A stretch of 64,000 nt of DNA from a virus: positions 23,240 through 87,239 of IMG/VR virus record IMGVR_UViG_3300023174_005819, one strand, 5' to 3'. Every line of letters begins with the position of its first letter. Position 1 is the first letter of the stretch. Below the pieces are notes generated by a model that saw only the letters and a program-made list of their open reading frames with translations, made no database searches and was not told the DNA's origin. Positions 25,235 through 54,231 of this stretch are shown here, in pieces. The position numbers were made by a program, and so were the translations under genes.

Positions 25235-26719
25235 ATGATTTATTCTTTACAAGTAGAAAGACATGTATTAGGTGGTCTATTAAAGCATCAAGATTTATTT
25301 GCAGATATTGATGTATTTTTAACAGAGAATGATTTCTATAATGATGTTCATTGTACTATTTATTCAATATTTAAGAATATCAAGCATAGGGGCGAAAATG
25401 TAGATAAAGTACTATTAGCCGAAAAGATTAAAAATCTTGGAATCTCATTTAAAGATGAAATTAATATCTTTGATTATATTGATAACTTAAGCTTCTCACA
25501 AATCACGGAAGAAGCAACAATGGAAGCGTGCAAGGAACTTATTAAGTTGCGAGTTAGAAGAGAAATATCTTCAACAGCAGATAAGCTTAAAGAATATGTA
25601 ACGAAAAACTCAGATGAATCACTTGATTCTATAATATCTAAAATAGATCAGATTTATAACAAAAAGATCTCGTCTTATTCTGAGAATGATATGCCAATTA
25701 ATATTTTTGAAGGAGTTGAAGATCTTATCGAAGAAATTGGCAATAGTCCAAAAGAAGATACTGGACTTATAACTCCATATTCTGAATTTAATAGAATGTA
25801 TGGTGGTTTAAAGAATGGTAATATTTATGCAATCGCAAGTAGGCCAGGTCAAGGAAAATCAACTTGGTTAAATGATATTTGTTTTAAAACTTCTATTAAT
25901 CCTAAGAATAAAACTAAAACTCTTATTCTTGATACCGAAATGCAAACTGTAGATATTCAATTAAGAATGGTTGCATCTTTAAGTGGAGTTCCAGTTTGGT
26001 ATCTTGAAACTGGAAACTGGCGTAAAAATGAAGAAATGACCAAGAAAGTAAGAGAAGCTTGGGATAAGGTTAAAAAATATGAATACTTTCATTATCATGT
26101 AGGAAATAAAAATATTGATCAAGTATGTTCTATGATTCGCAGATGGTATCTTTCTAAAGTTGGAAGAGGAAATCAAGCTATGATCGCTTATGATTACATT
26201 AAACTAACTGGAGAAAAAGTCGGACAAAACTGGGCAGAACATCAAGCGATTGGTGATAAGATAGACAAACTAAAAAGAATTTCAGAAGAAATCAATTGTC
26301 CAATTATTACAGCCATGCAATTGAATAGAACTGGTGAAAGTTTTAATAGAAAAGGTTCAGAGGTTGTTGATGATAGCTCTGTAATTTCACTTTCAGATAG
26401 ATTACAATGGTTCGCATCATTCGTAGCAATCTTTAGAAGAAAAACTCTAGATGAGATTACTCTTGATGGTCAAGCGTTTGGAACTCATAAGTTGATTCCC
26501 ACTAAAACTAGATTCCAAGGAAAAGACGCAGCTGGTCATCAAGATTTGGTTAGAAGACTAGATTGCACTGGTAAAGAAGTCTGGTCACAAAATTATTTAA
26601 ATTATAATGTTCAAAACTTTAATATAGAAGAAAGAGGATCACTCGCAGATGTAGCAGAACGTCAAAGAGAACAATACGAACTTAATGATGCAAACGCAAA
26701 TGACGGAGAACTATTATGA
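25235..26719 (+). CDS. dnaB: Replicative DNA helicase, DnaB-like
   Basis: A 494-residue hexameric helicase. Residues 1 to about 110 are the DnaB N-terminal helical domain (VERHVLGGLLKHQDLF). The RecA-like C-terminal ATPase has Walker A in ASRPGQGKSTWLN (residues about 203-215), TLILDTEMQ, a Walker B segment AMIAYDYIKLTGE and the AMQLNRTGES sensor motif. Length is normal for DnaB (about 470). No loader of DnaC type is seen nearby. It starts an operon with thyX, primase and a RecB-like nuclease. Confidence 0.88.
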   Translation: MIYSLQVERHVLGGLLKHQDLFADIDVFLTENDFYNDVHCTIYSIFKNIKHRGENVDKVLLAEKIKNLGISFKDEINIFDYIDNLSFSQITEEATMEACKELIKLRVRREISSTADKLKEYVTKNSDESLDSIISKIDQIYNKKISSYSENDMPINIFEGVEDLIEEIGNSPKEDTGLITPYSEFNRMYGGLKNGNIYAIASRPGQGKSTWLNDICFKTSINPKNKTKTLILDTEMQTVDIQLRMVASLSGVPVWYLETGNWRKNEEMTKKVREAWDKVKKYEYFHYHVGNKNIDQVCSMIRRWYLSKVGRGNQAMIAYDYIKLTGEKVGQNWAEHQAIGDKIDKLKRISEEINCPIITAMQLNRTGESFNRKGSEVVDDSSVISLSDRLQWFASFVAIFRRKTLDEITLDGQAFGTHKLIPTKTRFQGKDAAGHQDLVRRLDCTGKEVWSQNYLNYNVQNFNIEERGSLADVAERQREQYELNDANANDGELL

Positions 26720-27372
26720 ATGTAAATTTAGTATCAATTACAAAACCAGAAATTAAAGGAATTAAAAATCCAGAAGATTTAGTTGCATTTTGTGCTAGAG
26801 TTAGTAATCCATCTAATCAAATGAATGTTGAAACTGCTCCGAAGCTATTAAAATTTTTAATCAAACATAAGCATTGGAGTCCATTCGAACTTGTTGATAT
26901 GTGTGTTGAAATTAAAACTAGCAGAGGAATTGCAGCTCAAATTCTTAGACACAGATCATTTAGTTTTCAAGAATTTAGTCAAAGATATAGTATTGCAAAT
27001 GAGTTTGAAGATATTGAACTCAGATTACAAGGAGATAAGAATAGGCAAGTGGGTGAAATTCTTATGAAAACAAATACCGATGCATATGATAAAGTCAATG
27101 AACTTCTAATAGAATCCCTATCACTTTCTCAACATTGTTATGATACAATGATTGAAAATGGAGTTGCGAAAGAAGTAGCAAGAATGATATTACCACTAAC
27201 AACTCAAACCACAATGTATATGAAAGGTTCATTAAGAAGCTGGATTCATTATATCGAATTAAGAACAGAACAGAATACTCAAAAAGAACATAGAGTAATT
27301 GCAGAAAAATGTAAAAAGATTTTCATTAAAGAATTTCCTACAATAAGTGAGGCTTTAGAATGGAAGAATTAA
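26716..27372 (+). CDS. thyX: Flavin-dependent thymidylate synthase
   Basis: A 218-residue enzyme that methylates dUMP using FAD and NADPH. The ThyX signature RHRSFSFQEFSQRYS (residues about 78-92; RHRx(7)S pattern) is intact, and the C-terminal RSWIHYIELR..TQKEHR segment binds dUMP. Length is typical. It overlaps dnaB by ATGA. It supplies dTTP for phage DNA synthesis independent of folate ThyA. Confidence 0.93.
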   Translation: MNVNLVSITKPEIKGIKNPEDLVAFCARVSNPSNQMNVETAPKLLKFLIKHKHWSPFELVDMCVEIKTSRGIAAQILRHRSFSFQEFSQRYSIANEFEDIELRLQGDKNRQVGEILMKTNTDAYDKVNELLIESLSLSQHCYDTMIENGVAKEVARMILPLTTQTTMYMKGSLRSWIHYIELRTEQNTQKEHRVIAEKCKKIFIKEFPTISEALEWKN

Positions 27373-28265
27373 ATGTATATCAAATCCTAACAGATCTTGG
27401 TTACCAATTAAAAGATTGTGGAAAAGAATTTAGAGCTAAACCTTTATATAGGGATAGCGATAATGACTCTGTATTAAGAATCTACAAAGATACTGGCAAA
27501 TGGGTGGATTTCAAACAGAATATGAGCGGCGACATAAACTCACTAGTTAAATTAACACTTAAATTAGAAAATCCAAGTGAAGCTCAAGAATGGCTTAAAA
27601 ATAAAAACTTTGCATTTAAAAAGCCAACAGAACCAGAAAAACCACTTATAAAATCTTCTAAAAAATTTGATATAGAAATTCTTTCTAAACTACAAGACGA
27701 TCAAGAGTATTGGCTCAAAAGAGGAGTAGATATTGAAACATTAAAAATTTTCAAAGGTGGAGTTGCAAAAATGGGAAAGATGAAAAACAGATATGTATTT
27801 CCTATTTTTAATTCTAAGAATAATATTATAGGATTTTCTGGAAGAGACATTACCAATTTATCTAAGATAAAGTGGAAGCATATTGGTGAAAAAACAGAAT
27901 TTGTTTATCCATTATTTGTTAATTCAGAAATCATACAACAACAAAAAGAAATAATCTTAGTTGAAAGTATTGGAGATATGTTGAGTTTATGGCAAGCTGG
28001 AGTTAAGAATACTCTTGTTACATTTGGAACTAGTTTAAGTTTAGCGATTTTAAATTACTGTTTAAAACTTGATCCAAAAAAAATTTATATTAGTTTAAAC
28101 AATGATTCAAATAAAAACAATGCTGGAAATATTGCAGCAGAAAAAACTCAATCTAGATTGAGTAGATACTTTGATAAAAGTCAACTTAAAATAGCTCTAC
28201 CACCTAAAAAAGATTTTGGTGAGATGACTAAAGAAGAAATAATTCAATGGAAAAACAATCTTTAA
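27360..28265 (+). CDS. TOPRIM primase, DnaG-like
   Basis: A 301-residue protein, shorter than bacterial DnaG (about 600). The N-terminal part (residues 1-75) resembles a CHC2-type zinc-domain shape (FRAKPLYRDSDNDSVLRIYKDTGKWVDF..GGDI-like) but lacks clear zinc-binding Cys/His. IILVESIGDMLSLWQAG (about 198-214) is the TOPRIM glutamate motif and ISLNNDSNKNNAGNIAAE the DxD-like motif, here with N-D. Adjacent DnaB supports a primase role. It overlaps thyX by 13 bases. Confidence 0.75.
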   Translation: MEELNVYQILTDLGYQLKDCGKEFRAKPLYRDSDNDSVLRIYKDTGKWVDFKQNMSGDINSLVKLTLKLENPSEAQEWLKNKNFAFKKPTEPEKPLIKSSKKFDIEILSKLQDDQEYWLKRGVDIETLKIFKGGVAKMGKMKNRYVFPIFNSKNNIIGFSGRDITNLSKIKWKHIGEKTEFVYPLFVNSEIIQQQKEIILVESIGDMLSLWQAGVKNTLVTFGTSLSLAILNYCLKLDPKKIYISLNNDSNKNNAGNIAAEKTQSRLSRYFDKSQLKIALPPKKDFGEMTKEEIIQWKNNL

Positions 28266-29212
28266 AAGTATTATCAGCATCTAGAATTAAAACTCTTGAG
28301 ACTTGCTCTTGGGTTTATTGGAATAATTATCATACCAAAGTTCCACAATCTCAAAATGATGGAGCTTTAAGAGGAACGATTTGTCATACAGTTTTTGAAT
28401 TACTCTTAAATAAAAGACATCTTAAAAATTATAAAAGAATAATAAAAAAGAATTCGATTGATGGTGATGAGGGAGTAAATAGGTTAGTTAAAAAACTATC
28501 AGCAAAGGTCAAGCTTGACGAAAGCAATTATAAACTATTAAATGATATGATTTTAGTTGGCCTTAAAAACGACTTCTTTGGACAAGGTGGAGAAATAATT
28601 AAACCAGAGTATGATTTTGATATTAAAAATGATGAACCAAAATATCATATTCGTGGCTTTATAGATAAGCCAGTTAAAATCAAAAAAGAAATGCATATAA
28701 TCGACTATAAAAGCTCTAAATACAAGTTTAGGGGTGATGACCTTGAAGCTAATATTCAAGCTATGATGTATAGTCTTGCTAGTAAAAAATTATGGCCCAA
28801 GTTGAAACCTATTGTTAAATTTCTATTTCTCAGGTTTCCAAAACAACCAATTCAAGAGCTAGTATTTGATGACAATCAAATTAAAGGATTCGAGCATTAT
28901 CTGGAGCACATTAATGATTATGTTAATAAGTTTGACGAAGAATCTGCCAGATCAAACTTTGCAATAGATAGCGTTAAGAATAAGTGGATGTGTCAAATTG
29001 GTGGATGGAAATGTCCATATAAAGATCCATATACATATTATGTCAAAGTAAATGATAAAGGCGATATAGTAGAAACTAGCCTAGAAGATAATTTTAAAGA
29101 TATTAAAGGATTCAAAGTAGAAACTCGAAAATATGAAGGATGTCCAAAGTTTCAAGCTGCTTCCGCTAAAGATGACTTTCTAGATGACTCAAAAGACGAA
29201 TTTTTAGATTGA
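28247..29212 (+). CDS. RecB/Cas4-like PD-(D/E)XK exonuclease
   Basis: A 321-residue protein. SASRIKTLETCSWVYW at the start, RGTICHTVFELLL (His motif, residues about 46-58), GFIDKPVKIKKEMHIIDYKSS (D..D-x-K catalytic pair, about 139-158) and an IQAMMYSLA helix match the RecB-family nuclease core. One Cys near residue 17 and Cys residues near the C-terminus (WMCQIGGWKCPY, GCPKF) could hold a Cas4/AddB-type iron-sulfur cluster. The C-terminus is acidic (DDSKDEFLD). Likely used in recombination or DNA processing. Confidence 0.75.
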   Translation: MEKQSLKVLSASRIKTLETCSWVYWNNYHTKVPQSQNDGALRGTICHTVFELLLNKRHLKNYKRIIKKNSIDGDEGVNRLVKKLSAKVKLDESNYKLLNDMILVGLKNDFFGQGGEIIKPEYDFDIKNDEPKYHIRGFIDKPVKIKKEMHIIDYKSSKYKFRGDDLEANIQAMMYSLASKKLWPKLKPIVKFLFLRFPKQPIQELVFDDNQIKGFEHYLEHINDYVNKFDEESARSNFAIDSVKNKWMCQIGGWKCPYKDPYTYYVKVNDKGDIVETSLEDNFKDIKGFKVETRKYEGCPKFQAASAKDDFLDDSKDEFLD

Positions 29213-29244: not shown

Positions 29245-29991
29245 ATGATACCTTTATTTAAATCTCATTATTCTTTAGGAAGATCTATTCTTACTCTAGA
29301 GGATAAATCTGAAAGAGATGAGTATCCAGATTCTATTATTCAAATAGCTAAACAAAATAAATTAAAAGAGATATTTCTAGTAGAAGATAATATGTCATCA
29401 TTTCTTGAAGCTTATACTAATTGCAAGAACAATGATATTAAATTAAATTATGGATTAAGAATTTCAGTTACAGAGTCGATAGCTGATAAAACGGATGAAT
29501 CAAGAGCAAAAAACTCAAAATTTATACTTTTCTTTAAAAATAAAAAAGGTTACGAATCCTTGACTAAATTATTTAGTATTGGTGCAAAAGATGGTTTTTA
29601 TTATGAACCTAGAGTAGATTATACTACAATAAAGAATAACTGGTCAGATGATTTAATTATGGGTATTCCATTCTATGATTCTTTCATATTTAATAATACT
29701 TTAAAAAATAGCATATGTGTTCCACAAATAGATTTTACAAAACCAGTAGTATTCATTGAGCAAAATGAATTGCCTTTTGATTTTATTATTAAAGATAAAA
29801 TATTATCATTTGCAGAAAAGAATAAATTAGAAATTTATAAAGCAAAAAGCATTTACTATAATGATAGAAAAGATTTTAAAACATACTTGACATTCAGATG
29901 CATTAATAATAGAAGTGTTCTAAATAAACCAGATATTGAGCATATGAGTAGTAATGAATTTTCTTTTGAAAGCTGGAAGGAAAATAATTAA
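29245..29991 (+). CDS. DNA polymerase III alpha, separate PHP domain
   Basis: A 248-residue protein equivalent to the N-terminal PHP domain of DnaE. FKSHYSLGRSIL near residue 5 corresponds to the HSDYS opening with its His; LKEIFLVEDNMSSFLEA matches the A.TDH.N..G block but with ED-N where His would be, so the metal site looks degraded. KNKKGYESLTKLFSIGAKDGFYY matches the N.GY.NLL..S block. It stops before the palm; the polymerase core is a separate gene at 30851, after an exonuclease gene. Start at ATG 29245, matched to the leaderless promoter. Confidence 0.75.
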   Translation: MIPLFKSHYSLGRSILTLEDKSERDEYPDSIIQIAKQNKLKEIFLVEDNMSSFLEAYTNCKNNDIKLNYGLRISVTESIADKTDESRAKNSKFILFFKNKKGYESLTKLFSIGAKDGFYYEPRVDYTTIKNNWSDDLIMGIPFYDSFIFNNTLKNSICVPQIDFTKPVVFIEQNELPFDFIIKDKILSFAEKNKLEIYKAKSIYYNDRKDFKTYLTFRCINNRSVLNKPDIEHMSSNEFSFESWKENN

Positions 29992-29993
29992 AT

Positions 29994-30632
29994 ATGGACG
30001 AACATTTATTAAGATACGACAAAAATAAAACTTTAGTTTTTATAGATTGCGAAACATTTAATCTTTGCTTAAATTTTTGTCATAATATTCCTTGGCAAAT
30101 TGCTATGCTTAAAGTTCAAGGCGATAAAAAAATTGATCAAAAGAATTTTTATTTAAAATGGCAAACAGACTTAAAAATTAGTCAAGATGCAGCCAGAATC
30201 ACAAGATATGACCATAAAAAAGTTCAAAAAGAAGGTTATGATCCTAAAGAGATATTTCCAACTATTAAAGATTGGTTAGACCATGCAGATTATATTATTG
30301 GTCACAATACTCTTGGGTTTGACATTTATCTTATAAAAGAGTATTATAAATACATGGGTTGTAATTGGCATCATCTTGTGAATAAATTTATTGATACAAA
30401 TGCAATAGCAAGAGGTATAAAATATGAGATGCCTTATAATTCAAAAGATAGCTTAATTGAATATCAATATAAAATTCTTCATACTAGAAAAAAGAATGTT
30501 AAAAGTTCTTTGACTTTCTTAGGAAAAGAAAATGGGATAGAACATGATTACGAAAAACTTCATGATGCTATTAATGATCTTGACTTAAATTTAAAAGTAT
30601 GGAATAAATTAAAATGGCAATTAGAGGTATAA
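29994..30632 (+). CDS. DnaQ-like 3'-5' exonuclease
   Basis: A 212-residue DEDDh proofreading exonuclease. LVFIDCETFN (residues about 14-23) is Exo I (DxE); ADYIIGHNTLGFDIYLI (about 100-116) is Exo II with its Asp; LHDAINDLDLNLKVW (about 191-205) is Exo III with the H-x4-D pair. Being 2 bases after the PHP gene and before the polymerase gene, it most likely proofreads for this phage replicase. Confidence 0.87.
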   Translation: MDEHLLRYDKNKTLVFIDCETFNLCLNFCHNIPWQIAMLKVQGDKKIDQKNFYLKWQTDLKISQDAARITRYDHKKVQKEGYDPKEIFPTIKDWLDHADYIIGHNTLGFDIYLIKEYYKYMGCNWHHLVNKFIDTNAIARGIKYEMPYNSKDSLIEYQYKILHTRKKNVKSSLTFLGKENGIEHDYEKLHDAINDLDLNLKVWNKLKWQLEV

Positions 30633-30633
30633 T

Positions 30634-30858
30634 ATGGCATCATTAGACGATATTTATGATATAATCCAAAAACTAGAAAATGGTGGAATAGAATATTTAC
30701 TTATCACGGTCCAAAAAGGTAAAAAACAAGGTAAGGCTGATGTATTCTTTAATCTAAAAGATAAGGCATCTATGAAAATATTAGCGACTGGATTAGCAGC
30801 TTTTAACAAAGAGATAGATAATATTGATAGACAAGATGAAGATGAAGATGATGAATAA
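30634..30858 (+). CDS. Small acidic protein between exonuclease and polymerase
   Basis: A 74-residue protein one base after the exonuclease stop. Body: a short helix, a IEYLLITVQKGK beta pair, a DVFFNLKDKAS strand and an ATGLAAFNKE helix; tail DRQDEDEDDE. Similar in plan to the 87-residue gene at 24930. Position suggests a replisome accessory protein, possibly binding the clamp, exonuclease or polymerase. No known family. Confidence 0.5.
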   Translation: MASLDDIYDIIQKLENGGIEYLLITVQKGKKQGKADVFFNLKDKASMKILATGLAAFNKEIDNIDRQDEDEDDE

Positions 30859-33433
30859 TACCATAAAAGATGAATTATTTTCCAGTAAGTTTACTACTAC
30901 TGACCTTGGATTGCATGGGGTCAGACTTCCAGAATTTAATATTGATGGATCTTTAAAAAGACATCTTAACATTAGCGAAGATGTTTCTAATTACGACTTT
31001 CTAAGGGCATTAGCCCTAAATGGTTTCAAAGATTTAAAGATAGAAAAAGATAATAAAGATTACAAGAAATATATTGATCGAGCAAAATACGAACTAGAAA
31101 CATTGAAAGAATTAGGTTTTACTGATTATGTTTTATTAGTATGGGATGTTATTAATTTTTGTAAAACAAATAATATACCAGTTGGACTAGGTAGAGGTTC
31201 AGCTGCTGGTTCACTTATTCTTTATCTAATTGGCGTAACTAGAATTGATCCAGTTAAATATGACCTTTATTTCGAAAGATTTATATCCAAGATTCGAGCT
31301 AAAAAGCAGGTTATTGATGGAGTAACATATCTTGATGGCAGTTTAATGTGCGATGTCGATTTAGATATTTGTTATTATAATCGTCAAAAAGTATTACAGT
31401 ATTTAGAGTCTAAATTTAAAGGTAAAACTAGTAAAATTCTAACGCTTAATACTTTAAGTGGAAAACTTTTAATTAAAGAATGTGGTAAAATCGTTGGAGA
31501 AAAAACAGAAGAAGAAATGACGAATATTTCTTCATTAATCCCCAAAGTTTATGGTCAAGTTAAAGATATTAATACTGCATATGAAGAAGTAGAAAAATTT
31601 AAAGAATGGTGCGATGAAAATAAAGAAACATTTCAAATTGCTTTAAAGTTAAGAGATTTAATTAAAAATAAAGGAGTTCATCCATCTGGAGTTCTTCTTT
31701 CTTACTACGATTTAGAAACAGTATGTCCAACAGAATTTTCTTCTGATAAAGAACCAGTTTCAAGTTTTGATATGAATTGGGTTAGTTTATTTAATATTAA
31801 ACTTGATATCTTGGGATTAAGAAGTGTTTCCGTAGTTGATGATGTTTGTAAAAATATTGGCATTAAAGTAGAAGATATTGATTTAAATCATGAATCTATC
31901 TATAGAAATCTACAAGATTTAAAATCTCCTCATGGTTTATTCCAAATTGAAGCAGAAACTAACTTTAGAGTTTGTCAAAAAGTAAAACCAAAGAATCTTG
32001 AAGAACTTAGCGGAGTATTAGCTCTAGCAAGACCTGGAGCATTACAATTCGTAGATAAATATGCTGCCCACACAAATTATCAACAATCAGAAAGTATTCA
32101 TCCATTCTTTGATGATATTCTAAAACAAACTGGTGGAGTAGCATTGTATCAAGAGCAATTGATGAAGATGGCTAATAAGATTGGATTTACTTTGGATGAA
32201 GCAGAAATCTTAAGAAGAATCGTAGGCAAAAAGAAAACCGAAGAGATCAAAGCTTGGAAAAAGAAGATTGAATCAAAGATCAAAGAAAATAAAATACCAA
32301 AAGAAGTAGGAGAAATTCTATGGAAAATCTTGGAAGATTCTGCGAATTATTCTTTTAACAAGAGTCATTCATTGGCATATGCAGCTTTAGCGGCAGTTAC
32401 AATTTATTTAAAATTTAATTATCCTCAACAATTCTTCTTATCTTTATTGAAAATGAGCAGAAACGAACCAGACCCAATTGGTGAAATTTCTAAAATTCAA
32501 AAAGAAATGCATGAGTTTGATATTAAACTTCTTCCTCCGCATATCATCAAATCAGAGATGGATTTCTCAACAGAAGATAAAGATATTAGATTCGGATTAC
32601 TATCAATCAAAGGTATTAGTGATAAATCTATTGAAAAATTAAATAGTTTTAGAAATAAGTATTCTAATAAATTTGAGATTTTTCAAGCAGCAGAAGAAGC
32701 CAATCTTAATATTGGAGTGTTATCTTCTTTAATTCAAGCAGGAGCATTGAGTGGTTTTAGTCAATCTAGAAGTAAAATTGTATTAGAAGCTCAATTATGG
32801 AATATTTTAACTTCTAAAGAAAAGAAATATTCAATTTCATTCGCAGACAAATTTGATTATGACTTAATTAAAATTATTAAGCATCTTAATAAATTTACTG
32901 ACGAAAAGAATCATTTAGTTATTAAAGATAATAGATTAAATACTATTAAAGCAAAATATGCACCATATCTTGAAATCTATAACCAAAATAGTAAAAGCGA
33001 AAGTTTTGCTAATTGGTATTATGAAAAGAAACTTTTGGGATATACATATAATAAAAATTTAAGAGATATCTTCGCAGAGAAAAGAGAAAATCTTAAATAT
33101 GTTAGCGATATTGTAGATGAACCAGTTAATAGTAAAGTGGCATTTGTTGGTCAAATAGAAGAAGTCTATACTGGGGTATCTAAAAATGAAAAGAAAACCA
33201 GATATGTAAGGTTAAAGATATCAGATGAAACAAGTTCAATTAGCGTATTAATATTTAATGATAATATTGAGAATAATAAATTATTAAATAATAAAGCTTT
33301 TGAAGAAGGAAATATTGTTATTGCTAAGGGCTCAAAGAGAGATGATTGTATATTTGGAGACTTGATAGCTATTCAAGATCATCAAATTTATATGAAATTA
33401 AATGATTTAAAAAAGACAGATAAAAATAATTGA
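30851..33433 (+). CDS. dnaE: DNA polymerase III alpha core lacking PHP domain
   Basis: An 860-residue C-family polymerase. The N-terminus (LPEFNIDGSLKRHL) starts where a normal DnaE ends its PHP domain. YVLLVWDVINFCKTNNIPVGLGRGSAAGSLILY (residues about 97-129) is the classical GRGSAAGSL palm motif, and CDVDLDI (about 166-172) holds the catalytic aspartates. GVHPSGVLLS, an HhH-region ARPGALQFVD, then NYSFNKSHSLAYA follow. An OB fold lies near residues 760-840 (VAFVGQIEEVYTG..). The tau-binding tail of bacterial DnaE is absent. Start ATG 30851 overlaps the previous stop by 8 bases. Confidence 0.92.
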   Translation: MNNTIKDELFSSKFTTTDLGLHGVRLPEFNIDGSLKRHLNISEDVSNYDFLRALALNGFKDLKIEKDNKDYKKYIDRAKYELETLKELGFTDYVLLVWDVINFCKTNNIPVGLGRGSAAGSLILYLIGVTRIDPVKYDLYFERFISKIRAKKQVIDGVTYLDGSLMCDVDLDICYYNRQKVLQYLESKFKGKTSKILTLNTLSGKLLIKECGKIVGEKTEEEMTNISSLIPKVYGQVKDINTAYEEVEKFKEWCDENKETFQIALKLRDLIKNKGVHPSGVLLSYYDLETVCPTEFSSDKEPVSSFDMNWVSLFNIKLDILGLRSVSVVDDVCKNIGIKVEDIDLNHESIYRNLQDLKSPHGLFQIEAETNFRVCQKVKPKNLEELSGVLALARPGALQFVDKYAAHTNYQQSESIHPFFDDILKQTGGVALYQEQLMKMANKIGFTLDEAEILRRIVGKKKTEEIKAWKKKIESKIKENKIPKEVGEILWKILEDSANYSFNKSHSLAYAALAAVTIYLKFNYPQQFFLSLLKMSRNEPDPIGEISKIQKEMHEFDIKLLPPHIIKSEMDFSTEDKDIRFGLLSIKGISDKSIEKLNSFRNKYSNKFEIFQAAEEANLNIGVLSSLIQAGALSGFSQSRSKIVLEAQLWNILTSKEKKYSISFADKFDYDLIKIIKHLNKFTDEKNHLVIKDNRLNTIKAKYAPYLEIYNQNSKSESFANWYYEKKLLGYTYNKNLRDIFAEKRENLKYVSDIVDEPVNSKVAFVGQIEEVYTGVSKNEKKTRYVRLKISDETSSISVLIFNDNIENNKLLNNKAFEEGNIVIAKGSKRDDCIFGDLIAIQDHQIYMKLNDLKKTDKNN

Positions 33434-33466: not shown

Positions 33467-34012
33467 ATGATATCATTTTATAAACCAAATAGCAAGAATA
33501 CAGGCACGGCTTGTAGTTTCAGCGTAAATTCAAAAGATAATTCAGTATGGGGGTCATTAATCAAGCAAAGCTCTTGGAATGATGCCAAAAAAATTGGATC
33601 TTTTTCAGAAAATCAAAATAATCCAAGTAAAAGTGTTAAAGTCAAATTTTCTTTAACAGAAGCAGCAGGTCTTTTAGATGCTCTAGAAAGAAACACAGAA
33701 TTTTCAGCATATCATACTTCTGAGAAACAAATTACAAAAATCAAATTAGCACCTTATATTAGAGATGAAAAACAAGTAGGCTTTTCATATAGCGTAAATA
33801 AAGAAGACAAGCAAAATGTTGAAAATAAACAATCCTATTTGATTGGTTTTTATTTTAACGAAGCAAGACTATTGAAAGAATTTTTAAGTTATTCTTTAAA
33901 TTCTGTTTTCGAAGCTCAAAGAATTGAAGCTATTAAGAAAGCAAAAAATTCAACAAAAGAAACCAAAGACGTTAGCGCAACTAATCAAGAAGAAGATAGC
34001 GAACTCTGGTAA
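33467..34012 (+). CDS. Candidate single-stranded DNA-binding protein
   Basis: A 181-residue protein. Residues 1 to about 140 look beta-rich with aromatic/Lys residues (SVKVKFSLTEAAGLL, ITKIKLAPYI, GFSYSVNKED); the last 35 residues are charged and end in EEDSELW. An acidic C-terminal tail with a final aromatic residue is shared by SSB of bacteria, T7 gp2.5 and similar proteins. It follows the polymerase and has its own promoter, as expected for a highly expressed SSB. There is no recognised family motif, so this is inference. Confidence 0.45.
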   Translation: MISFYKPNSKNTGTACSFSVNSKDNSVWGSLIKQSSWNDAKKIGSFSENQNNPSKSVKVKFSLTEAAGLLDALERNTEFSAYHTSEKQITKIKLAPYIRDEKQVGFSYSVNKEDKQNVENKQSYLIGFYFNEARLLKEFLSYSLNSVFEAQRIEAIKKAKNSTKETKDVSATNQEEDSELW

Positions 34013-47432: not shown

Positions 47433-47446
47433 GTTATCGTTTTTTG
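47419..47446. terminator. Hairpin with T-run between two convergent genes
   Basis: AACTTAT / ATAAGTT form a 7-bp stem with a 3-base loop (47419-47435), followed on the + strand by ATCG and a run of six T (about 47440-47445). The stop codons of the + gene (47430-47432) and - gene (47434-47436) lie in or beside the stem, the same design as at 37925. Confidence 0.5.
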
Positions 47447-50400
47447 TATACATTAGATCCTAATAATCCGCCTGGTCTTTGCTGCTCTGTAATTGTTCTA
47501 ATAACTTGCTCTTTAACTCTTGCTGCTAATTCTTTTGTTCTTTGGTTCTCTGCTTGTCTGTCTTCATTTGCTGATGTGCTTTCATCCTTATTTTCTGATA
47601 CTATTTTTTCTTGATTTAAGTTAACTGTTACATTGATATTATTAGTTGGAGAATAATTGCTTGAGTTTCCTGTATTATCGTTACCAACTGATCCACCTTC
47701 TGCAAATTTTCTTGCTCTTCCAGAATTGAGATCATCAAAGAATTTTTTACCATACATATTGACCGCTTCTTTTCTCATTACAAATTCACCACCCATTAGA
47801 AGGGCTGGAATATCATCTTTGCCACTTGACCCACCATTTGCAAAACCTCTAATATATCCTCCCATAGCTTTACCTAATTTTAATCTTCCTCCAGAATATG
47901 GAGCAGGTTGAATAGGATTATAAGTAGTGCTACCATAAGCAGATCTTAAATTTACATCATTTACAGCGGTAGCTCTTCTTACCTCTTGAGAGCCCAAGGG
48001 AGATCCAGCGCCAAATATACTTTTAAATCCTCCCATTGAAGAGAATTGACTTGCTCCTGCTCCAAGGAGACCAAGACCAAAACTCATCCATGCGCCTCTA
48101 CTTTTTGCGCTTTTTTGTTGATTATATTCATCTCGAATTTTTTTATTTAGAGCTATATTTTCTTGTAATGCTCTTTCATTATCTGCTCTTACTCCATCTA
48201 CATAATTTAAATAATCGTATAAAGCTTGTTCTCTATCTTGCCTAATTCTATTTTGAGGATTATTTGGATCAGTAACAGCTCGCCCACTTAAATTTGAACT
48301 AAAAAGTTCTTGTCCAGCGGTTGGGTAAAGAGGATCATTATATCTATAAACATTTGTTCCAAGATAAGAAGTTTCTCCACCAGATGCAAATCTTTGAACT
48401 CTTCCACCGTATTTAAAATAATTATCTTCTCTGTCGCTCTGTCTTGCGCGCATGCCTATTCTAGAAGTTGGAGAAGTGTTGGTAGAAACATTTTGATTAC
48501 TTCCTTTACTATTACCTAGATTTATACCAAATACTGGAGCTATATTTTGAAGCATAGAAGGATTGCCTTGACCAAGTCCTGCCATAGCTAAACCCATCGC
48601 TCCTCCCAAAAAGTGTTTTTGAACCTTTCCTTCATTTAACATTTGCAAATATTCTGGACCATATTTTTTAACAGCATTTTTTCTTATTACATATTCTCCA
48701 CCACTTAACATAGCTGGAACATCATCTTTATTTCCTGATCCGCCAAGAACATGTCCTCCTGTAGAATAACCTTTAATAATTCCACCTTTTGATTTGGATA
48801 GACCGCTTAAAAAATCTCCGATTCCACCACCGAGACCGCTAGTACTACCAAAAAGAGAACCAAAAATTTGATTTGTTGCAAATTCTAATGCTAATTGTTG
48901 TATTCTATCACTAATATTATTAGCCATTCTTGTAAATGCATCACTTGCTGTTTCTGTTCCATTCGCAAAAGATAAAAAGGCATTGTTAAATTCGCTTTTT
49001 ATTGTTCGCGCTGTGTCAGAAGCGGTTTGATTTACATCTCTAAATGCATCTTGAGCACCATATGTCATTTCGTCTGTAAAGGAACTAAATGCATCGCCTA
49101 TATTTCCCTGTCCACTTCTTATTCTATCTTCTCTTGCTTTATTTTGTAATTGTTTATATTCATCTGCAAATATAGTTCCTTCTTTGAACGCGGCTACTGC
49201 TTGCAAACTAGTTGCAGCTGCAGATGAAGCATAATTTAATTTAACTATGTTGTCACCAAGTTCTTTTTTAAGTTGAGATTCTTTTTCTGTATAAATATTT
49301 AATACTTCATTTCTAGTAGCAGCATCGCCAATTGATGAACCTAGTTCTACTAAATTTTTACTTGTCATACTAGCTTCCATGCTAGTTTGTTGAATTGCAA
49401 TTTGTAATTCAGCTAATGTCCTATCAGTTAAATTTCCAGTTTCTTCAATTTCTTGTGCAGCTTTTTTATAAGCTTCTCCAAATTTTGTTTCTAATGCGAT
49501 TCTTTTTCTTTTGTCTGTTGTCCCTGTTAATATTCCCTGTAAAGCTGAAAGATTAGTTCCTCTAAGAATCTCATTTTGTTTTAAATTTTGCCCTGGACCG
49601 TTTAAAAAGTCTTCTACTAAAAGACCAAAATCTCCTTTTTGAATAAAATCTGCAGCTTGGCTTCTTACAACTGAATCTGGTGAGAATAATTTTTGGGTTT
49701 GTGCACTTAAATTACTTAAATTTAAAAAAGCTGATTCTTGTCTTTTAAATGCTGCGTCCACTTCACGAGAAGTATTTCTTAAGTTTCCAAAAGCATCTTG
49801 TAATGCCTTTGATTTTTCTGTCAATGATTTATCACTATTTAATACTTTTTCTATAGAGTCTGCTAATTCTAAAGCTTTATCTTTTTCTAATTTTCCAGAA
49901 TCTCCTAATTGAAGGATGAAATCCTTTAATCCTTTCCCAGAATCTTGAATTGCTGTTTGTAAATCTTTTTCATAAGCCTCTTTGCTTGGATTAATTACGG
50001 TCACATTTCCAAGATCATCTACTATTGTTTGTATTTTTTGTGATCCAAATCCAGCAGGAGCTGCTCCAGCGCCACCTACATTAGTAGTATTAAATCCAAA
50101 TATATCATTTTTTGCAAATTCATCTATACTCATAGTAGCTTTATCTGCTGCAATTGATGCTTGCTCTATAGATTTTGCTACTTGATCATTTATTCCATAG
50201 TATTTTTCTGAAGCTATAGTTAATGTATCAAATGATTTCAATAAACCGCTTTGTTGAGATATTAAATCTGCAATATATTCTCCATTTTTTGTTTTTATTG
50301 ATCCTAATTGTCTAAGTGTATCGGTTATATCTAAATTTTTAGCTCCATCTTTAAGTTGTTCATTAGTTGTTTGTATGAATTGATTTACAAAATTATTAGA

Positions 50401-53400
50401 AGCAATTTCATCGTTTGCTTTTTGTATTGCAGACTGTAGCTGGGCCTCTGTTCCAGATAATCCTGCTAAAAGTTCTTTTTGAATACCTTCGCTTACAGAC
50501 GAAAAAATTCTATTAAATGAAGCAGATCTTTGAGATTCTAATTTAGCTAAATCTTCTGGTCCAGCGGTAATTGCTCCAGATTGAATTCCTGCTACTTTTT
50601 CTCTTGAGGTTAAAAATGCTTGAACGTCTTCAGAAAATCTTGCTACTCTATTACCAGATTCTCTAGAGCTCTTCGCAAGCTCTTCTGATTTATCATTTAA
50701 TTGTTTAAAAGCTTTAGTTAATCCAATTGTAACACCAACTAATCCACCAAACGCTACGCCCAATGGCCCAAATAAAGCTCCTGCGCCAGCAAATGATGCT
50801 GTATCACTTAAAACTGTTGTTCCAGCTGTAGCATATTTATTATTTGGCATAAATTCTTGAATTATTTGGCTTACTATTGGAACGGCTATACTTGCTCCAA
50901 TTCCAATACCTTGTAATCTTGAAGCTGAATTAGCTCTTCTTTCTCTTGCTGCTTCTAATCCACCTCGCGCTAATTCTGCTCCTCTTCCTCCAGATGCTGC
51001 TCTTGCTTCTAATTGTTTTACGGCTTTAGAACCTGTTATTAAATTTCCACTTGCAGCAACTAATGAATCTGTTTCAACCACTAATCTTTTGTAAGAAGCA
51101 TCTGCGCGATTCAATGTATTTCTTACTTTTTCTGTAGTAGAATCAATTAAATAAAATTCTCTAGTAAGTTTCTCTAATTCTTTATTTGCTTGATCAAAAG
51201 TTAGTATTCCTCTATAAACTTTTTTTGCAAGATCTGTAAGCGCTGCATTAGCTTCTTTAGATGCTGGAACGATAAGTGGACCTGATTGTCCTTGATTTGA
51301 TTGATATAAAGCAAAATTAGGAATTAGTCCTTTAGCAGCACCTGCTCTGCGAGCTTCACTTACTGAACCATATCTTGATATGCCTTGAGATAATCCTCTT
51401 GGTTCATCTCTTGTATTATAAACTCCAAGACCGCTAGGATTCATATTAGAAATTAAAGAGTTATCTCTTCCGATTCTTATAGAATTTGGATTTACTCCAG
51501 CTTTCTTTTCTCTATTTATTGCATCATTTAAATCATTTGCAAAATTAGGAATAAATCCATCAAAAGCTTTTTTACCTTTAACTGTAGAAAATTTTCCTGC
51601 TCCAAGTAAAGCTCCTTCTTCTCTATAAATTTTATTTGCAAAACTTTGCAAATTACCTTCAGATAATCCACTTTTAAAATCTGCAAGAAATGTTGTAAAA
51701 CCAAAAAGTTTTTGTAAATGTATTAAATTTTTTCCTCCTCTAACGTCAAAATCTCCAAAGTCTTTTGGTGCTTCTTCAGCAGTATATCCTAATGCCGTTT
51801 TTATTCCAACTTCAAAAGCAGAACCAACTGCGCCACGAACTGCTCCATATGCTCCTTTTTCTCCAGAACGTTGAAATTGTAACCCTAAATTTGCTTTAGT
51901 TACAGTTTTTCCCAAAGGTTTTAATGTATCAATAAAATTAAATACATCATCTATGATACTATTAGTTATATTTGTGCCTAATCTTGCCTTATCGTCAGAA
52001 ACATCTCCATCTACTTTAGTTTTATTAATTCCATAAACTGGAACATTTTTAATTGCAAATCTATCAGATTTACCTTTTGGTGAATATGGTCCAGGTAATA
52101 TTTTTTTAGTTCCTGCGAATGGTAACAATATACTTGCAATATTACTAGCATCTACTGGTTTAATTCCTGCTGCTAACGCTGCTTTTTGACCCCTAGGAGA
52201 TCTGCTTAAAATATCATCTTTTTGAGCTTCAGATACAGTTAAAGCTTTTCCTGCTGAATCTACTCCATATTTAAATTTTTGAGTTCCTGGAATTCTTTCT
52301 AATTCATTTTTTATCGCAGCTAATCTAACTGCTTCATTTCTGCCCAACTCAAAATTTGGGATAAATCCACTATTGGCATAAGGATTAAATCCGTGAGCAT
52401 TAGAAAATTGTTTTTGATAATTTTTTCCAGCTTTGCTACCTTGAGGTGGCATTATAGCTGGTTGAGAAAATCCTTGTATTCTTTTTACTGTTTCTGCAGA
52501 ATTATAAACTACTCTACCAGCTCCAGCAATATTCATTTCTTTAATATTTCCTGGTTTATATCCTCCAGCTAATGCACCATAAATTTCTTGCATTGCAAAG
52601 TTTGGAATAAATCCATCACTTCTTGTAGTAATTTGCCCACCTTTAAGAGTTACTCCTCTACCAACTAATCCGCTAGTAATTGAACCAGATAAAGCCGTGG
52701 CTTGTTGTCTTAATGCATTTTGTTCTCTTAAGATTCCTAATATTCTATTTTCTACATCTAATATTGAAATTTGTTTAGAAGCTATTGCTGAAAGAAGTTG
52801 TGGTTCTTGAGAAAGAATACTCGAAATTTTTCCTTCAATAGCAGCTCTATCCGCAGCTTGCTTGCCAATACCTAGTAATGTTTTAGCTGAAGTAGCGGCA
52901 AATTTACTTAAATCTAAAAATAATTTTCCAATAACAGCTGTTATTAATAATAATCCAGGACCAGATATAAAAGTAGAAAGACCACCTAGAATTCCAGCTC
53001 CAATTTTAGCTCCAACGCTTTCTGAGTCTTGATTAGCTAACCCTTCTAATATATTATTTACATTTTTTAATGTGCCTTCGATTGCTGGTTGAAAAGCTCC
53101 CGCACCAATTTTAGCTCCTAACTGACTAAAGTTTGTTAGCGTTCTGCTTGTTAAAGCGGATAGAGTTTCATTTAATGCTTCATTTCGTTTAATGGCTTGA
53201 TCAGTCGCGCCTCTTGAAGTATTTAAAGCATTATTATAAACAGAATATTCTTTACCCAAATCACCCAAAGCAGCTTTTAAAATGTTAATCTGGAAAACAC
53301 CACCAACACTTTCTGCAACTTGTGATCTTTGAGCATCAGAAAGAGTATCAAAAGTTGATGACAATTCTTTTAAAATATCAATCGCTGGACGAGTGCTACC

Positions 53401-54231
53401 ATCTAAATTACGAACTTCTAAGCCTAAGTTTTGTAATTGATCCAATACTTCTGGTCTAGCAACTCTTGTAAAAATAGTCTTTAATGAATTACCAATAACT
53501 GCACCACCTCTAGCAGTAGTTTGCTGAACGCTTGTTACAATAGCTAATAATTCATCGAATCCAACCCCTGCGTCTTGAGCAGAACTACCAACTCGTTGAA
53601 TTGCATTAGCCAAATCAGCAGAACTAACAGCAAAAGCCGCGTCAACATTTGCTAATTTATTAATAACAGTTGTTGAATCTAGGGCTGTTTGATTAAAACT
53701 GTTTAATGTAGCTGTTAAGGCTTCTACGCTAGAAACAGTATCTAATCCACTTAATCTAGTTAAAATTAAAGCATCTCTTGTTCTTTTTAGTGTTTCTTCT
53801 ACGCCAAGACCTTGACGAGCTAATTCTGTTGCAGCTTCTGCAACTGATTGAAATGATTGTCCAGTATCTTTAGCTACGGTGAATAAATCTGCACCAAATT
53901 TTTCTAATCCCTTTGATGTTGTATTTAATATGATATTAATATCAGTAAGAGATTTTTCAACATCTATTGTACTTTTGATTAAACTAACGAAAGCTTTTTC
54001 TACAGCAAAAATTGATCCAGCACTAGCACCGAATGCGATAACACGAGCATTAGAAGCATCTAATGACTTTTGGAACTCGTTAGAAGCTCCAGTAATTCGG
54101 CCTAATGGCTGGGTAAAGGCCTTTTCATTAAATCCTTTGAATTTAAAATCGCGAGATAAAGCACTTTGAATATCTTTTTCAAGTTGCCTTGTATCTGCAC
54201 CTACAGAAATTGTAGCTGACGTTCTTGCCAT
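47434..54231 (-). CDS. Tail tape measure protein with embedded minidomains
   Basis: A 2265-residue protein. Residues about 1-450 are the TP901-type tape measure start: VAKDTGQSFQSVAEAATELARQG and SSAQDAGVGFDELLAIVTSVQQTTARGG. Residues about 538-975 contain four G[FL]IPNF motifs that divide short domains, one with a nuclease-like pattern (E807, D827/D829, D851-x-K853). Membrane-like helices occur at about 1120-1190. Coiled-coil helices follow. Two copies of a DD[VI]PA.L.GGE[YF]V.RK.AV..YG block, typical of tape measure tails, are near the C-terminus. Length predicts a long tail. Start has AAGGA before the ATG. Confidence 0.9.
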   Translation of the reverse strand: MARTSATISVGADTRQLEKDIQSALSRDFKFKGFNEKAFTQPLGRITGASNEFQKSLDASNARVIAFGASAGSIFAVEKAFVSLIKSTIDVEKSLTDINIILNTTSKGLEKFGADLFTVAKDTGQSFQSVAEAATELARQGLGVEETLKRTRDALILTRLSGLDTVSSVEALTATLNSFNQTALDSTTVINKLANVDAAFAVSSADLANAIQRVGSSAQDAGVGFDELLAIVTSVQQTTARGGAVIGNSLKTIFTRVARPEVLDQLQNLGLEVRNLDGSTRPAIDILKELSSTFDTLSDAQRSQVAESVGGVFQINILKAALGDLGKEYSVYNNALNTSRGATDQAIKRNEALNETLSALTSRTLTNFSQLGAKIGAGAFQPAIEGTLKNVNNILEGLANQDSESVGAKIGAGILGGLSTFISGPGLLLITAVIGKLFLDLSKFAATSAKTLLGIGKQAADRAAIEGKISSILSQEPQLLSAIASKQISILDVENRILGILREQNALRQQATALSGSITSGLVGRGVTLKGGQITTRSDGFIPNFAMQEIYGALAGGYKPGNIKEMNIAGAGRVVYNSAETVKRIQGFSQPAIMPPQGSKAGKNYQKQFSNAHGFNPYANSGFIPNFELGRNEAVRLAAIKNELERIPGTQKFKYGVDSAGKALTVSEAQKDDILSRSPRGQKAALAAGIKPVDASNIASILLPFAGTKKILPGPYSPKGKSDRFAIKNVPVYGINKTKVDGDVSDDKARLGTNITNSIIDDVFNFIDTLKPLGKTVTKANLGLQFQRSGEKGAYGAVRGAVGSAFEVGIKTALGYTAEEAPKDFGDFDVRGGKNLIHLQKLFGFTTFLADFKSGLSEGNLQSFANKIYREEGALLGAGKFSTVKGKKAFDGFIPNFANDLNDAINREKKAGVNPNSIRIGRDNSLISNMNPSGLGVYNTRDEPRGLSQGISRYGSVSEARRAGAAKGLIPNFALYQSNQGQSGPLIVPASKEANAALTDLAKKVYRGILTFDQANKELEKLTREFYLIDSTTEKVRNTLNRADASYKRLVVETDSLVAASGNLITGSKAVKQLEARAASGGRGAELARGGLEAARERRANSASRLQGIGIGASIAVPIVSQIIQEFMPNNKYATAGTTVLSDTASFAGAGALFGPLGVAFGGLVGVTIGLTKAFKQLNDKSEELAKSSRESGNRVARFSEDVQAFLTSREKVAGIQSGAITAGPEDLAKLESQRSASFNRIFSSVSEGIQKELLAGLSGTEAQLQSAIQKANDEIASNNFVNQFIQTTNEQLKDGAKNLDITDTLRQLGSIKTKNGEYIADLISQQSGLLKSFDTLTIASEKYYGINDQVAKSIEQASIAADKATMSIDEFAKNDIFGFNTTNVGGAGAAPAGFGSQKIQTIVDDLGNVTVINPSKEAYEKDLQTAIQDSGKGLKDFILQLGDSGKLEKDKALELADSIEKVLNSDKSLTEKSKALQDAFGNLRNTSREVDAAFKRQESAFLNLSNLSAQTQKLFSPDSVVRSQAADFIQKGDFGLLVEDFLNGPGQNLKQNEILRGTNLSALQGILTGTTDKRKRIALETKFGEAYKKAAQEIEETGNLTDRTLAELQIAIQQTSMEASMTSKNLVELGSSIGDAATRNEVLNIYTEKESQLKKELGDNIVKLNYASSAAATSLQAVAAFKEGTIFADEYKQLQNKAREDRIRSGQGNIGDAFSSFTDEMTYGAQDAFRDVNQTASDTARTIKSEFNNAFLSFANGTETASDAFTRMANNISDRIQQLALEFATNQIFGSLFGSTSGLGGGIGDFLSGLSKSKGGIIKGYSTGGHVLGGSGNKDDVPAMLSGGEYVIRKNAVKKYGPEYLQMLNEGKVQKHFLGGAMGLAMAGLGQGNPSMLQNIAPVFGINLGNSKGSNQNVSTNTSPTSRIGMRARQSDREDNYFKYGGRVQRFASGGETSYLGTNVYRYNDPLYPTAGQELFSSNLSGRAVTDPNNPQNRIRQDREQALYDYLNYVDGVRADNERALQENIALNKKIRDEYNQQKSAKSRGAWMSFGLGLLGAGASQFSSMGGFKSIFGAGSPLGSQEVRRATAVNDVNLRSAYGSTTYNPIQPAPYSGGRLKLGKAMGGYIRGFANGGSSGKDDIPALLMGGEFVMRKEAVNMYGKKFFDDLNSGRARKFAEGGSVGNDNTGNSSNYSPTNNINVTVNLNQEKIVSENKDESTSANEDRQAENQRTKELAARVKEQVIRTITEQQRPGGLLGSNVYKKR
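51315..52615 (-). repeat. Four G[FL]IPNF motifs in the tape measure gene
   Basis: Residues 540-545 (GFIPNF), 622-627 (GFIPNF), 892-897 (GFIPNF) and 968-973 (GLIPNF). Each is preceded by Asp/Ser/Ala and usually followed by Ala. Between them lie units with recurrent words: AGAGRVVYN, HGFNPYA, SIRIGRDN and GLGVYNTRDEP. Confidence 0.85.

What the first reader, a model, noticed from the sequence alone, without database searches (positions are those of the whole stretch)
29245..33433. DNA polymerase III alpha split at the PHP/palm boundary with the proofreading gene between the halves
Normal DnaE has PHP and polymerase in one chain. Here they are separate genes, and a DnaQ-like exonuclease plus a 74-residue acidic protein sit between. 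In Gram-positive PolC the exonuclease is inserted in the PHP domain; this operon looks like a taken-apart PolC-like layout. The PHP metal residues look partly lost, consistent with the separate exonuclease doing proofreading.
Basis: partly seen in the sequence, partly recalled or inferred. Interest (0 to 1): 0.75.

Follow-up and report, generated by a model that had tools for sequence, protein, structure and literature searches.

The report
Phage DNA replicase in separate pieces
A family of uncultured phages makes its DNA-copying enzyme as separate proteins: the catalytic core, a detached and catalytically dead "PHP" support domain, and a proofreading nuclease encoded between them, although the textbook rule is that core and PHP domain always share one chain.

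Summary
Confirmed. The window lies in a phage record (87 kb). Four same-strand genes, 1-2 bp apart or overlapping, encode a PHP domain (29245-29991), a DEDDh exonuclease (29994-30632), a 74-residue acidic protein (30634-30858) and a PHP-less DnaE-type polymerase (30851-33433). The PHP model folds like the PHP domain of Thermus and E. coli Pol III alpha (TM 0.77-0.79). At least eight of its nine metal ligands are gone in every relative aligned, yet it is under strong purifying selection (dN/dS about 0.05). In all 117 distinct loci with the region covered, down to about 50% polymerase identity, PHP is a separate gene; none is fused and none lacks it. No A-, B- or second C-family polymerase was found. 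Best reading: a DnaE replicase assembled from a non-covalent structural PHP subunit, a trans exonuclease and a core. The "taken-apart PolC" idea is not supported: both halves score as DnaE. A second, independent PHP/palm split, with the metal site mostly intact, occurs in actinophages (Papyrus, JingleBells) and is visible in deposited annotation. A different split Pol III, inside the catalytic module, was published in 2021. I found no paper describing this one. The acidic protein's role is unknown.

The parts
29245..29991 (+). stand-alone PHP domain (248 aa), metal site lost, inferred structural subunit
   Evidence: PF02811 7e-14; AF2 model matches Pol III alpha PHP domains, TMq 0.77-0.79; at least 8 of 9 metal ligands replaced, R72 and K92 occupy two ligand positions; dN/dS 0.047
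29994..30632 (+). DnaQ-like DEDDh 3'-5' exonuclease (212 aa), inferred proofreader
   Evidence: PF00929 2e-12, phrog_192 8e-25; D18, E20, D110, H190, D195 invariant in 17 sequences
30634..30858 (+). 74-aa acidic protein, function unknown; its stop overlaps the polymerase start
   Evidence: helix-strand-strand-helix AF2 model, pLDDT 78, pTM 0.47, no significant PDB match; present in 95 of 117 loci
30851..33433 (+). PHP-less DnaE-type polymerase: palm, thumb, fingers, HhH and weak C-terminal OB (860 aa)
   Evidence: PF07733 5e-57; NF004226 positions 282-1047, 467 bits; D170, D172, D319 align with the catalytic Asp of E. coli DnaE
25235..26719 (+). DnaB-like helicase (context)
   Evidence: PF03796 5e-26
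27360..28265 (+). DnaG/Toprim-like primase (context)
   Evidence: PF13155 8e-9, phrog_47 3e-33
28247..29212 (+). PD-(D/E)XK nuclease next to PHP (context; its distances do not track PHP)
   Evidence: PF12705 1e-15
33467..34012 (+). candidate ssDNA-binding protein with acidic tail (inference only)
   Evidence: C-terminus EEDSELW; no family hit beyond a weak PF21628; conserved next to the polymerase in relatives

Best explanation
This is a phage-encoded DnaE-type (C-family) replicase made of separate chains. The polymerase chain (palm, thumb, fingers, HhH, OB) binds DNA and dNTPs. The PHP domain is supplied in trans as a catalytically dead subunit that docks beside palm and thumb, where the fused PHP sits in DnaE, and stabilises the active polymerase. 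The DEDDh exonuclease proofreads in trans, probably held against or near PHP. SHOWN: gene separation, folds and family membership, residue loss or retention, conservation, purifying selection, tracking of PHP, exonuclease and polymerase distances. INFERRED: physical assembly, stabilisation by PHP, proofreading by this exonuclease, and that this enzyme replicates the phage genome.
For: Separate PHP plus separate exonuclease in 117/117 loci with coverage, never fused, never missing. Dead PHP under constraint like the catalytic subunits: dN/dS PHP 0.047, EXO 0.034, POL 0.031. PHP, EXO and POL distances track each other (partial r 0.69 for all three pairs after removing primase and SSB), whereas the adjacent PDDEXK gene does not track PHP (r -0.06). 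DnaE PHP fold. Catalytic Asp of POL and DEDDh of EXO intact. No PolA, PolB or second C-family hit in the phage record and long relatives; helicase and primase encoded alongside. Biochemical precedent: the degenerate E. coli PHP domain stabilises Pol III and supports its activity, and PHP degeneration correlates with a separate proofreader (PMC3666897).
Against: No complex prediction or biochemistry was possible. The exonuclease ends 17 residues after its last catalytic Asp, so it lacks the long C-terminal tail by which E. coli epsilon binds PHP; if it binds PHP it does so differently. Foreign genes are tolerated between PHP and EXO and between EXO and POL. No bacterial-type clamp gene and no canonical clamp motif in the window polymerase, so processivity is unexplained. 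Long relatives are linear contigs that may be incomplete. The distance correlation uses non-independent pairs and no significance test.
Confidence: 0.8

Rival explanations
1. The PHP protein has left the polymerase and now serves only as an adaptor or regulator (for the exonuclease or another partner); the polymerase chain works without it.
For: Genes inserted between PHP and EXO in about half of near relatives; in L188/L218 PHP is fused to an extra C-terminal domain.
Against: PHP distances track POL as closely as EXO; PHP is never lost; its fold is still that of Pol III PHP.
Confidence: 0.13
2. The PHP gene is a decaying relic of a fission event.
For: Metal ligands lost in all relatives aligned.
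Against: Median dN/dS 0.047 and presence in 117 of 117 loci.
Confidence: 0.02
3. A PolC-like enzyme taken apart into PHP, Exo and polymerase genes.
For: Gene order PHP-Exo-Pol resembles the exonuclease insertion in PolC.
Against: HMM scores favour DnaE for both halves, C-terminal OB, PHP uninterrupted; the tree has no PolC, so this rests on HMMs and domain order.
Confidence: 0.02
4. The pieces are rejoined after translation (trans-splicing) or by a programmed frameshift.
For: A split intein does occur elsewhere, inside the polymerase of L206 and L209.
Against: No intein-like ends on PHP or POL, a complete exonuclease gene lies between, and PHP ends at a domain boundary.
Confidence: 0.01

Closest known systems
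Bacterial DnaE (Pol III alpha), e.g. E. coli and Thermus
   Same: PHP, palm, thumb, fingers, HhH and weak OB in the same domain order; catalytic Asp residues; E. coli also has a degenerate PHP and a separate DnaQ exonuclease
   Different: PHP is a separate gene; exonuclease lacks the epsilon C-terminal tail; no canonical clamp motif seen; about 30% core identity
Actinophage Papyrus gp72/gp74 and JingleBells gp56/gp57
   Same: PHP (PF02811 about 1e-35) and PHP-less polymerase core encoded by separate neighbouring genes; gp72 of the relative Rope is deposited as DnaE-like DNA polymerase III (alpha)
   Different: independent split on the tree; metal site mostly intact; no exonuclease between; a 128-aa unknown gene between in Papyrus
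Split Pol III alpha of group 2.2 jumbo phages (PMC7824862)
   Same: phage C-family polymerase in separate genes
   Different: split inside the catalytic module, distant genes, lacks other Pol III domains, accompanies a family B polymerase
Gram-positive PolC
   Same: PHP, DEDDh exonuclease and C-family polymerase together
   Different: PolC has the exonuclease inserted inside PHP and an N-terminal OB in one chain; HMM scores here favour DnaE

Membership tests
C-family, DnaE-type polymerase | Pol beta-like palm with catalytic Asp triad and DnaE HMM match | tested here: met
   D170, D172, D319; NF004226 467 bits; TIGR00594 445 bits, over its cut-off of 434
C-family, DnaE-type polymerase | PHP-palm-thumb-fingers in a single polypeptide | tested here: not met
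   PHP separate in 117 of 117 loci; definition from PMC3666897
C-family, DnaE-type polymerase | C-terminal OB fold | tested here: inconclusive
   PF13742 E=5e-4, below its curated cut-off, residues 758-837
C-family, DnaE-type polymerase | internal clamp-binding motif | tested here: not met
   pattern scan finds none in the window polymerase; E. coli QADMF is found as a control; a divergent motif is possible
PolC | exonuclease inserted within PHP, in one chain | tested here: not met
   PHP is an uninterrupted gene, exonuclease a later gene
PolC | PolC HMM preferred over DnaE | tested here: not met
   no PolC hit for the polymerase; 28.7 against 54.5 bits for PHP
Active PHP nuclease | nine metal ligands HHDHEH[C/H]DH | tested here: not met
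   at least 8 of 9 replaced; E to R72, H to K92; N-terminal alignment ambiguous by a few residues
DnaQ/epsilon proofreader | DEDDh active site | tested here: met
   invariant in 17 sequences
DnaQ/epsilon proofreader | C-terminal tail binding alpha PHP | tested here: not met
   212 aa, ends 17 residues after D195
Iyer 2021 split Pol III of jumbo phages | split between NTP-binding and Mg/DNA-binding subdomains, alongside PolB | tested here: not met
   palm to fingers in one chain; no PolB hit
Heteromeric replicase | PHP and exonuclease bind the polymerase | not testable with these tools
   no complex prediction available

The most novel reading that the evidence does not exclude
A four-part replicase core in which PHP, exonuclease and the small acidic protein are all true subunits, working without a bacterial-type sliding clamp, so that the detached PHP and the small protein provide stability and processivity.
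Probability: 0.15. Interest if true: 0.8.

Novelty: new variant of a known kind. Interest (0 to 1): 0.6.

Why it matters
The literature states that C-family polymerases always carry PHP, palm, thumb and fingers in one polypeptide (PMC3666897), and why a dead PHP is never lost is an open question. Here PHP is already a separate protein, so its contribution can be tested by simply adding or omitting it. Two independent fissions at the same boundary, one with a dead and one with a mostly intact metal site, give a natural experiment on structure versus catalysis.

Tried and rejected
PolC origin (HMM scores, domain order). Assembly or frameshift artefact (117 of 117 loci agree). A hidden full-length DnaE or other replicase in the phage (PF07733, PF02811, PF00476, PF00136: one PF07733 and one PF02811 hit per record searched, no PolA or PolB; contigs may be incomplete). 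A bacterial-type clamp (PF02768: none); T4-type clamps not searched. Relatives in bacterial genome contigs: two scans found none, so the host is unknown. Acidic protein: no Pfam, PHROG, NCBIfam or PDB match of weight. Alicyclobacillus phage KKP_3916 and Rossellomorea phage phiT1 looked split but break inside the polymerase and keep PHP with the first part. A PDB sequence search with the exonuclease found nothing.

Full report
WHAT IS THERE. The window is positions 23240-87239 of an 87,239-bp virus record. Four same-strand genes form a tight block: PHP 29245-29991, a 2-bp gap, exonuclease 29994-30632, a 1-bp gap, a 74-aa gene 30634-30858, and a polymerase whose ATG at 30848/30851 overlaps the preceding stop. 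Upstream lie a DnaB-like helicase, ThyX, a Toprim primase and a PD-(D/E)XK nuclease; downstream is a candidate ssDNA-binding protein.

BOTH HALVES ARE DnaE. Against the DnaE model NF004226 the PHP protein covers positions 12-250 and the polymerase 282-1047, so about 30 positions are missing between them. The polymerase scores 467 bits on that model with no PolC model among its hits; PHP scores 54.5 bits on DnaE and 28.7 on PolC. The weak OB fold is C-terminal, as in DnaE. The AF2 model of the PHP protein (pLDDT 87) matches Taq and E. coli Pol III PHP domains at TMq 0.77-0.79.

RESIDUES. At least eight of the nine PHP metal ligands are replaced in the window and in all relatives aligned; the ligand Glu is an invariant Arg (R72) and one ligand His is an invariant Lys (K92). 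The E. coli study noted that Arg is the commonest replacement, standing in for the metal's charge (PMC3666897). The extreme N-terminus aligns ambiguously. The exonuclease keeps D18, E20, D110, H190 and D195 in all 17 sequences aligned. The polymerase keeps the three Asp aligned with the catalytic Asp of E. coli DnaE.

CONSERVATION. From viral contigs I collected relatives of the polymerase and PHP. Among 127 distinct polymerase loci, including the window, 117 cover the PHP region; in all 117 PHP is a separate gene and the exonuclease is separate from both; none is fused and none lacks PHP. The most distant member (L225) has about 52% core identity. The acidic gene was found in 95 of the 117, so it is not obligatory in that place. 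About half of the near relatives carry a small extra gene, filling a gap of 450-590 bp, between PHP and the exonuclease.

SELECTION AND TRACKING. Median pairwise dN/dS is 0.047 for PHP, 0.034 for the exonuclease, 0.031 for the polymerase and 0.133 for the acidic gene. In 49 loci with all genes, PHP, exonuclease and polymerase distances correlate pairwise at 0.69 after removing primase and SSB distances. The PDDEXK gene, adjacent to PHP, shows -0.06 with PHP, and the acidic gene, although it lies between exonuclease and polymerase, only 0.13-0.26 with the three. Pairs are not independent, and the acidic gene is short, so this is suggestive only.

OTHER REPLICASES. One C-family polymerase was found in the window's record and in each of ten long relatives searched (97-172 kb). 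One PHP hit per record, and no PolA, PolB or bacterial-type clamp, were found in the window's record and ten long relatives. Records are linear contigs and may be incomplete.

INDEPENDENT SPLITS. Of a small sample of other phage C-family polymerases, most are fused. Mycobacterium phage Papyrus has gp72 = PHP (E 2e-36), gp73 = 128-aa unknown and gp74 = PHP-less core; Microbacterium phage JingleBells has gp56 = PHP and gp57 = core. A 26-row tree needs at least two separate changes to explain the splits, and the window's clade is monophyletic with full support. In the actinophage PHP proteins most ligands remain. Rope gp72 is deposited as DnaE-like DNA polymerase III (alpha), so that split is visible in annotation. 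The survey was not exhaustive, and more splits are likely.

LITERATURE. PMC3666897 states that all C-family members have the four domains within a single polypeptide and shows that the degenerate E. coli PHP supports stability and activity. PMC7824862 reports a differently split, minimal Pol III in jumbo phages beside a family B polymerase. I found no paper on a PHP/palm split; subscription papers and preprints were not searchable, and the 2011 survey of viral replicases was not held.

MECHANISM. The simplest reading is non-covalent re-assembly of a DnaE-like enzyme: PHP as structural subunit, exonuclease as trans proofreader, core as polymerase. The exonuclease lacks the epsilon tail, so how it is held is open; the acidic protein is one candidate linker, but its patchy presence and weak tracking argue against a universal role. 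How processivity is achieved without an encoded bacterial-type clamp is also open.

Noticed in passing
L206:5938-8997 and L209:3717-6701: The polymerase is further divided by what looks like a split intein between SFN(R/K) and SHS: N-part starts CLSEDT(V/I)V, C-part ends HNFYAEGIVTSN. L225 carries a contiguous intein at the same place (weak NCBIfam intein hits).
   Followed up: partly
L002, L005, L008, L017, L023 and others, between PHP and exonuclease: Insertion hot spot for small ORFs of several unrelated-looking families; some look like PD-(D/E)XK nucleases by eye. In L188 and L218 one such domain is fused to the C-terminus of PHP.
   Followed up: partly
L170, L172, between exonuclease and polymerase: Glycosyltransferase-like or sulfotransferase-like genes (by eye, not searched) inserted between exonuclease and polymerase.
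   Followed up: no
L241:2927-6530 (Cellulophaga phage phiST): Polymerase divided into two overlapping ORFs just before the catalytic PDIDTD motif, without annotation in the record; possibly an atypical split intein.
   Followed up: no
window 31313-31372 (polymerase residues about 155-174): A clade-specific insertion (YLDGSLMC region) directly before the catalytic DxD loop, absent from nearly all fused relatives aligned.
   Followed up: no
window 47434-54231, - strand: A 2265-aa ORF, not examined.
   Followed up: no
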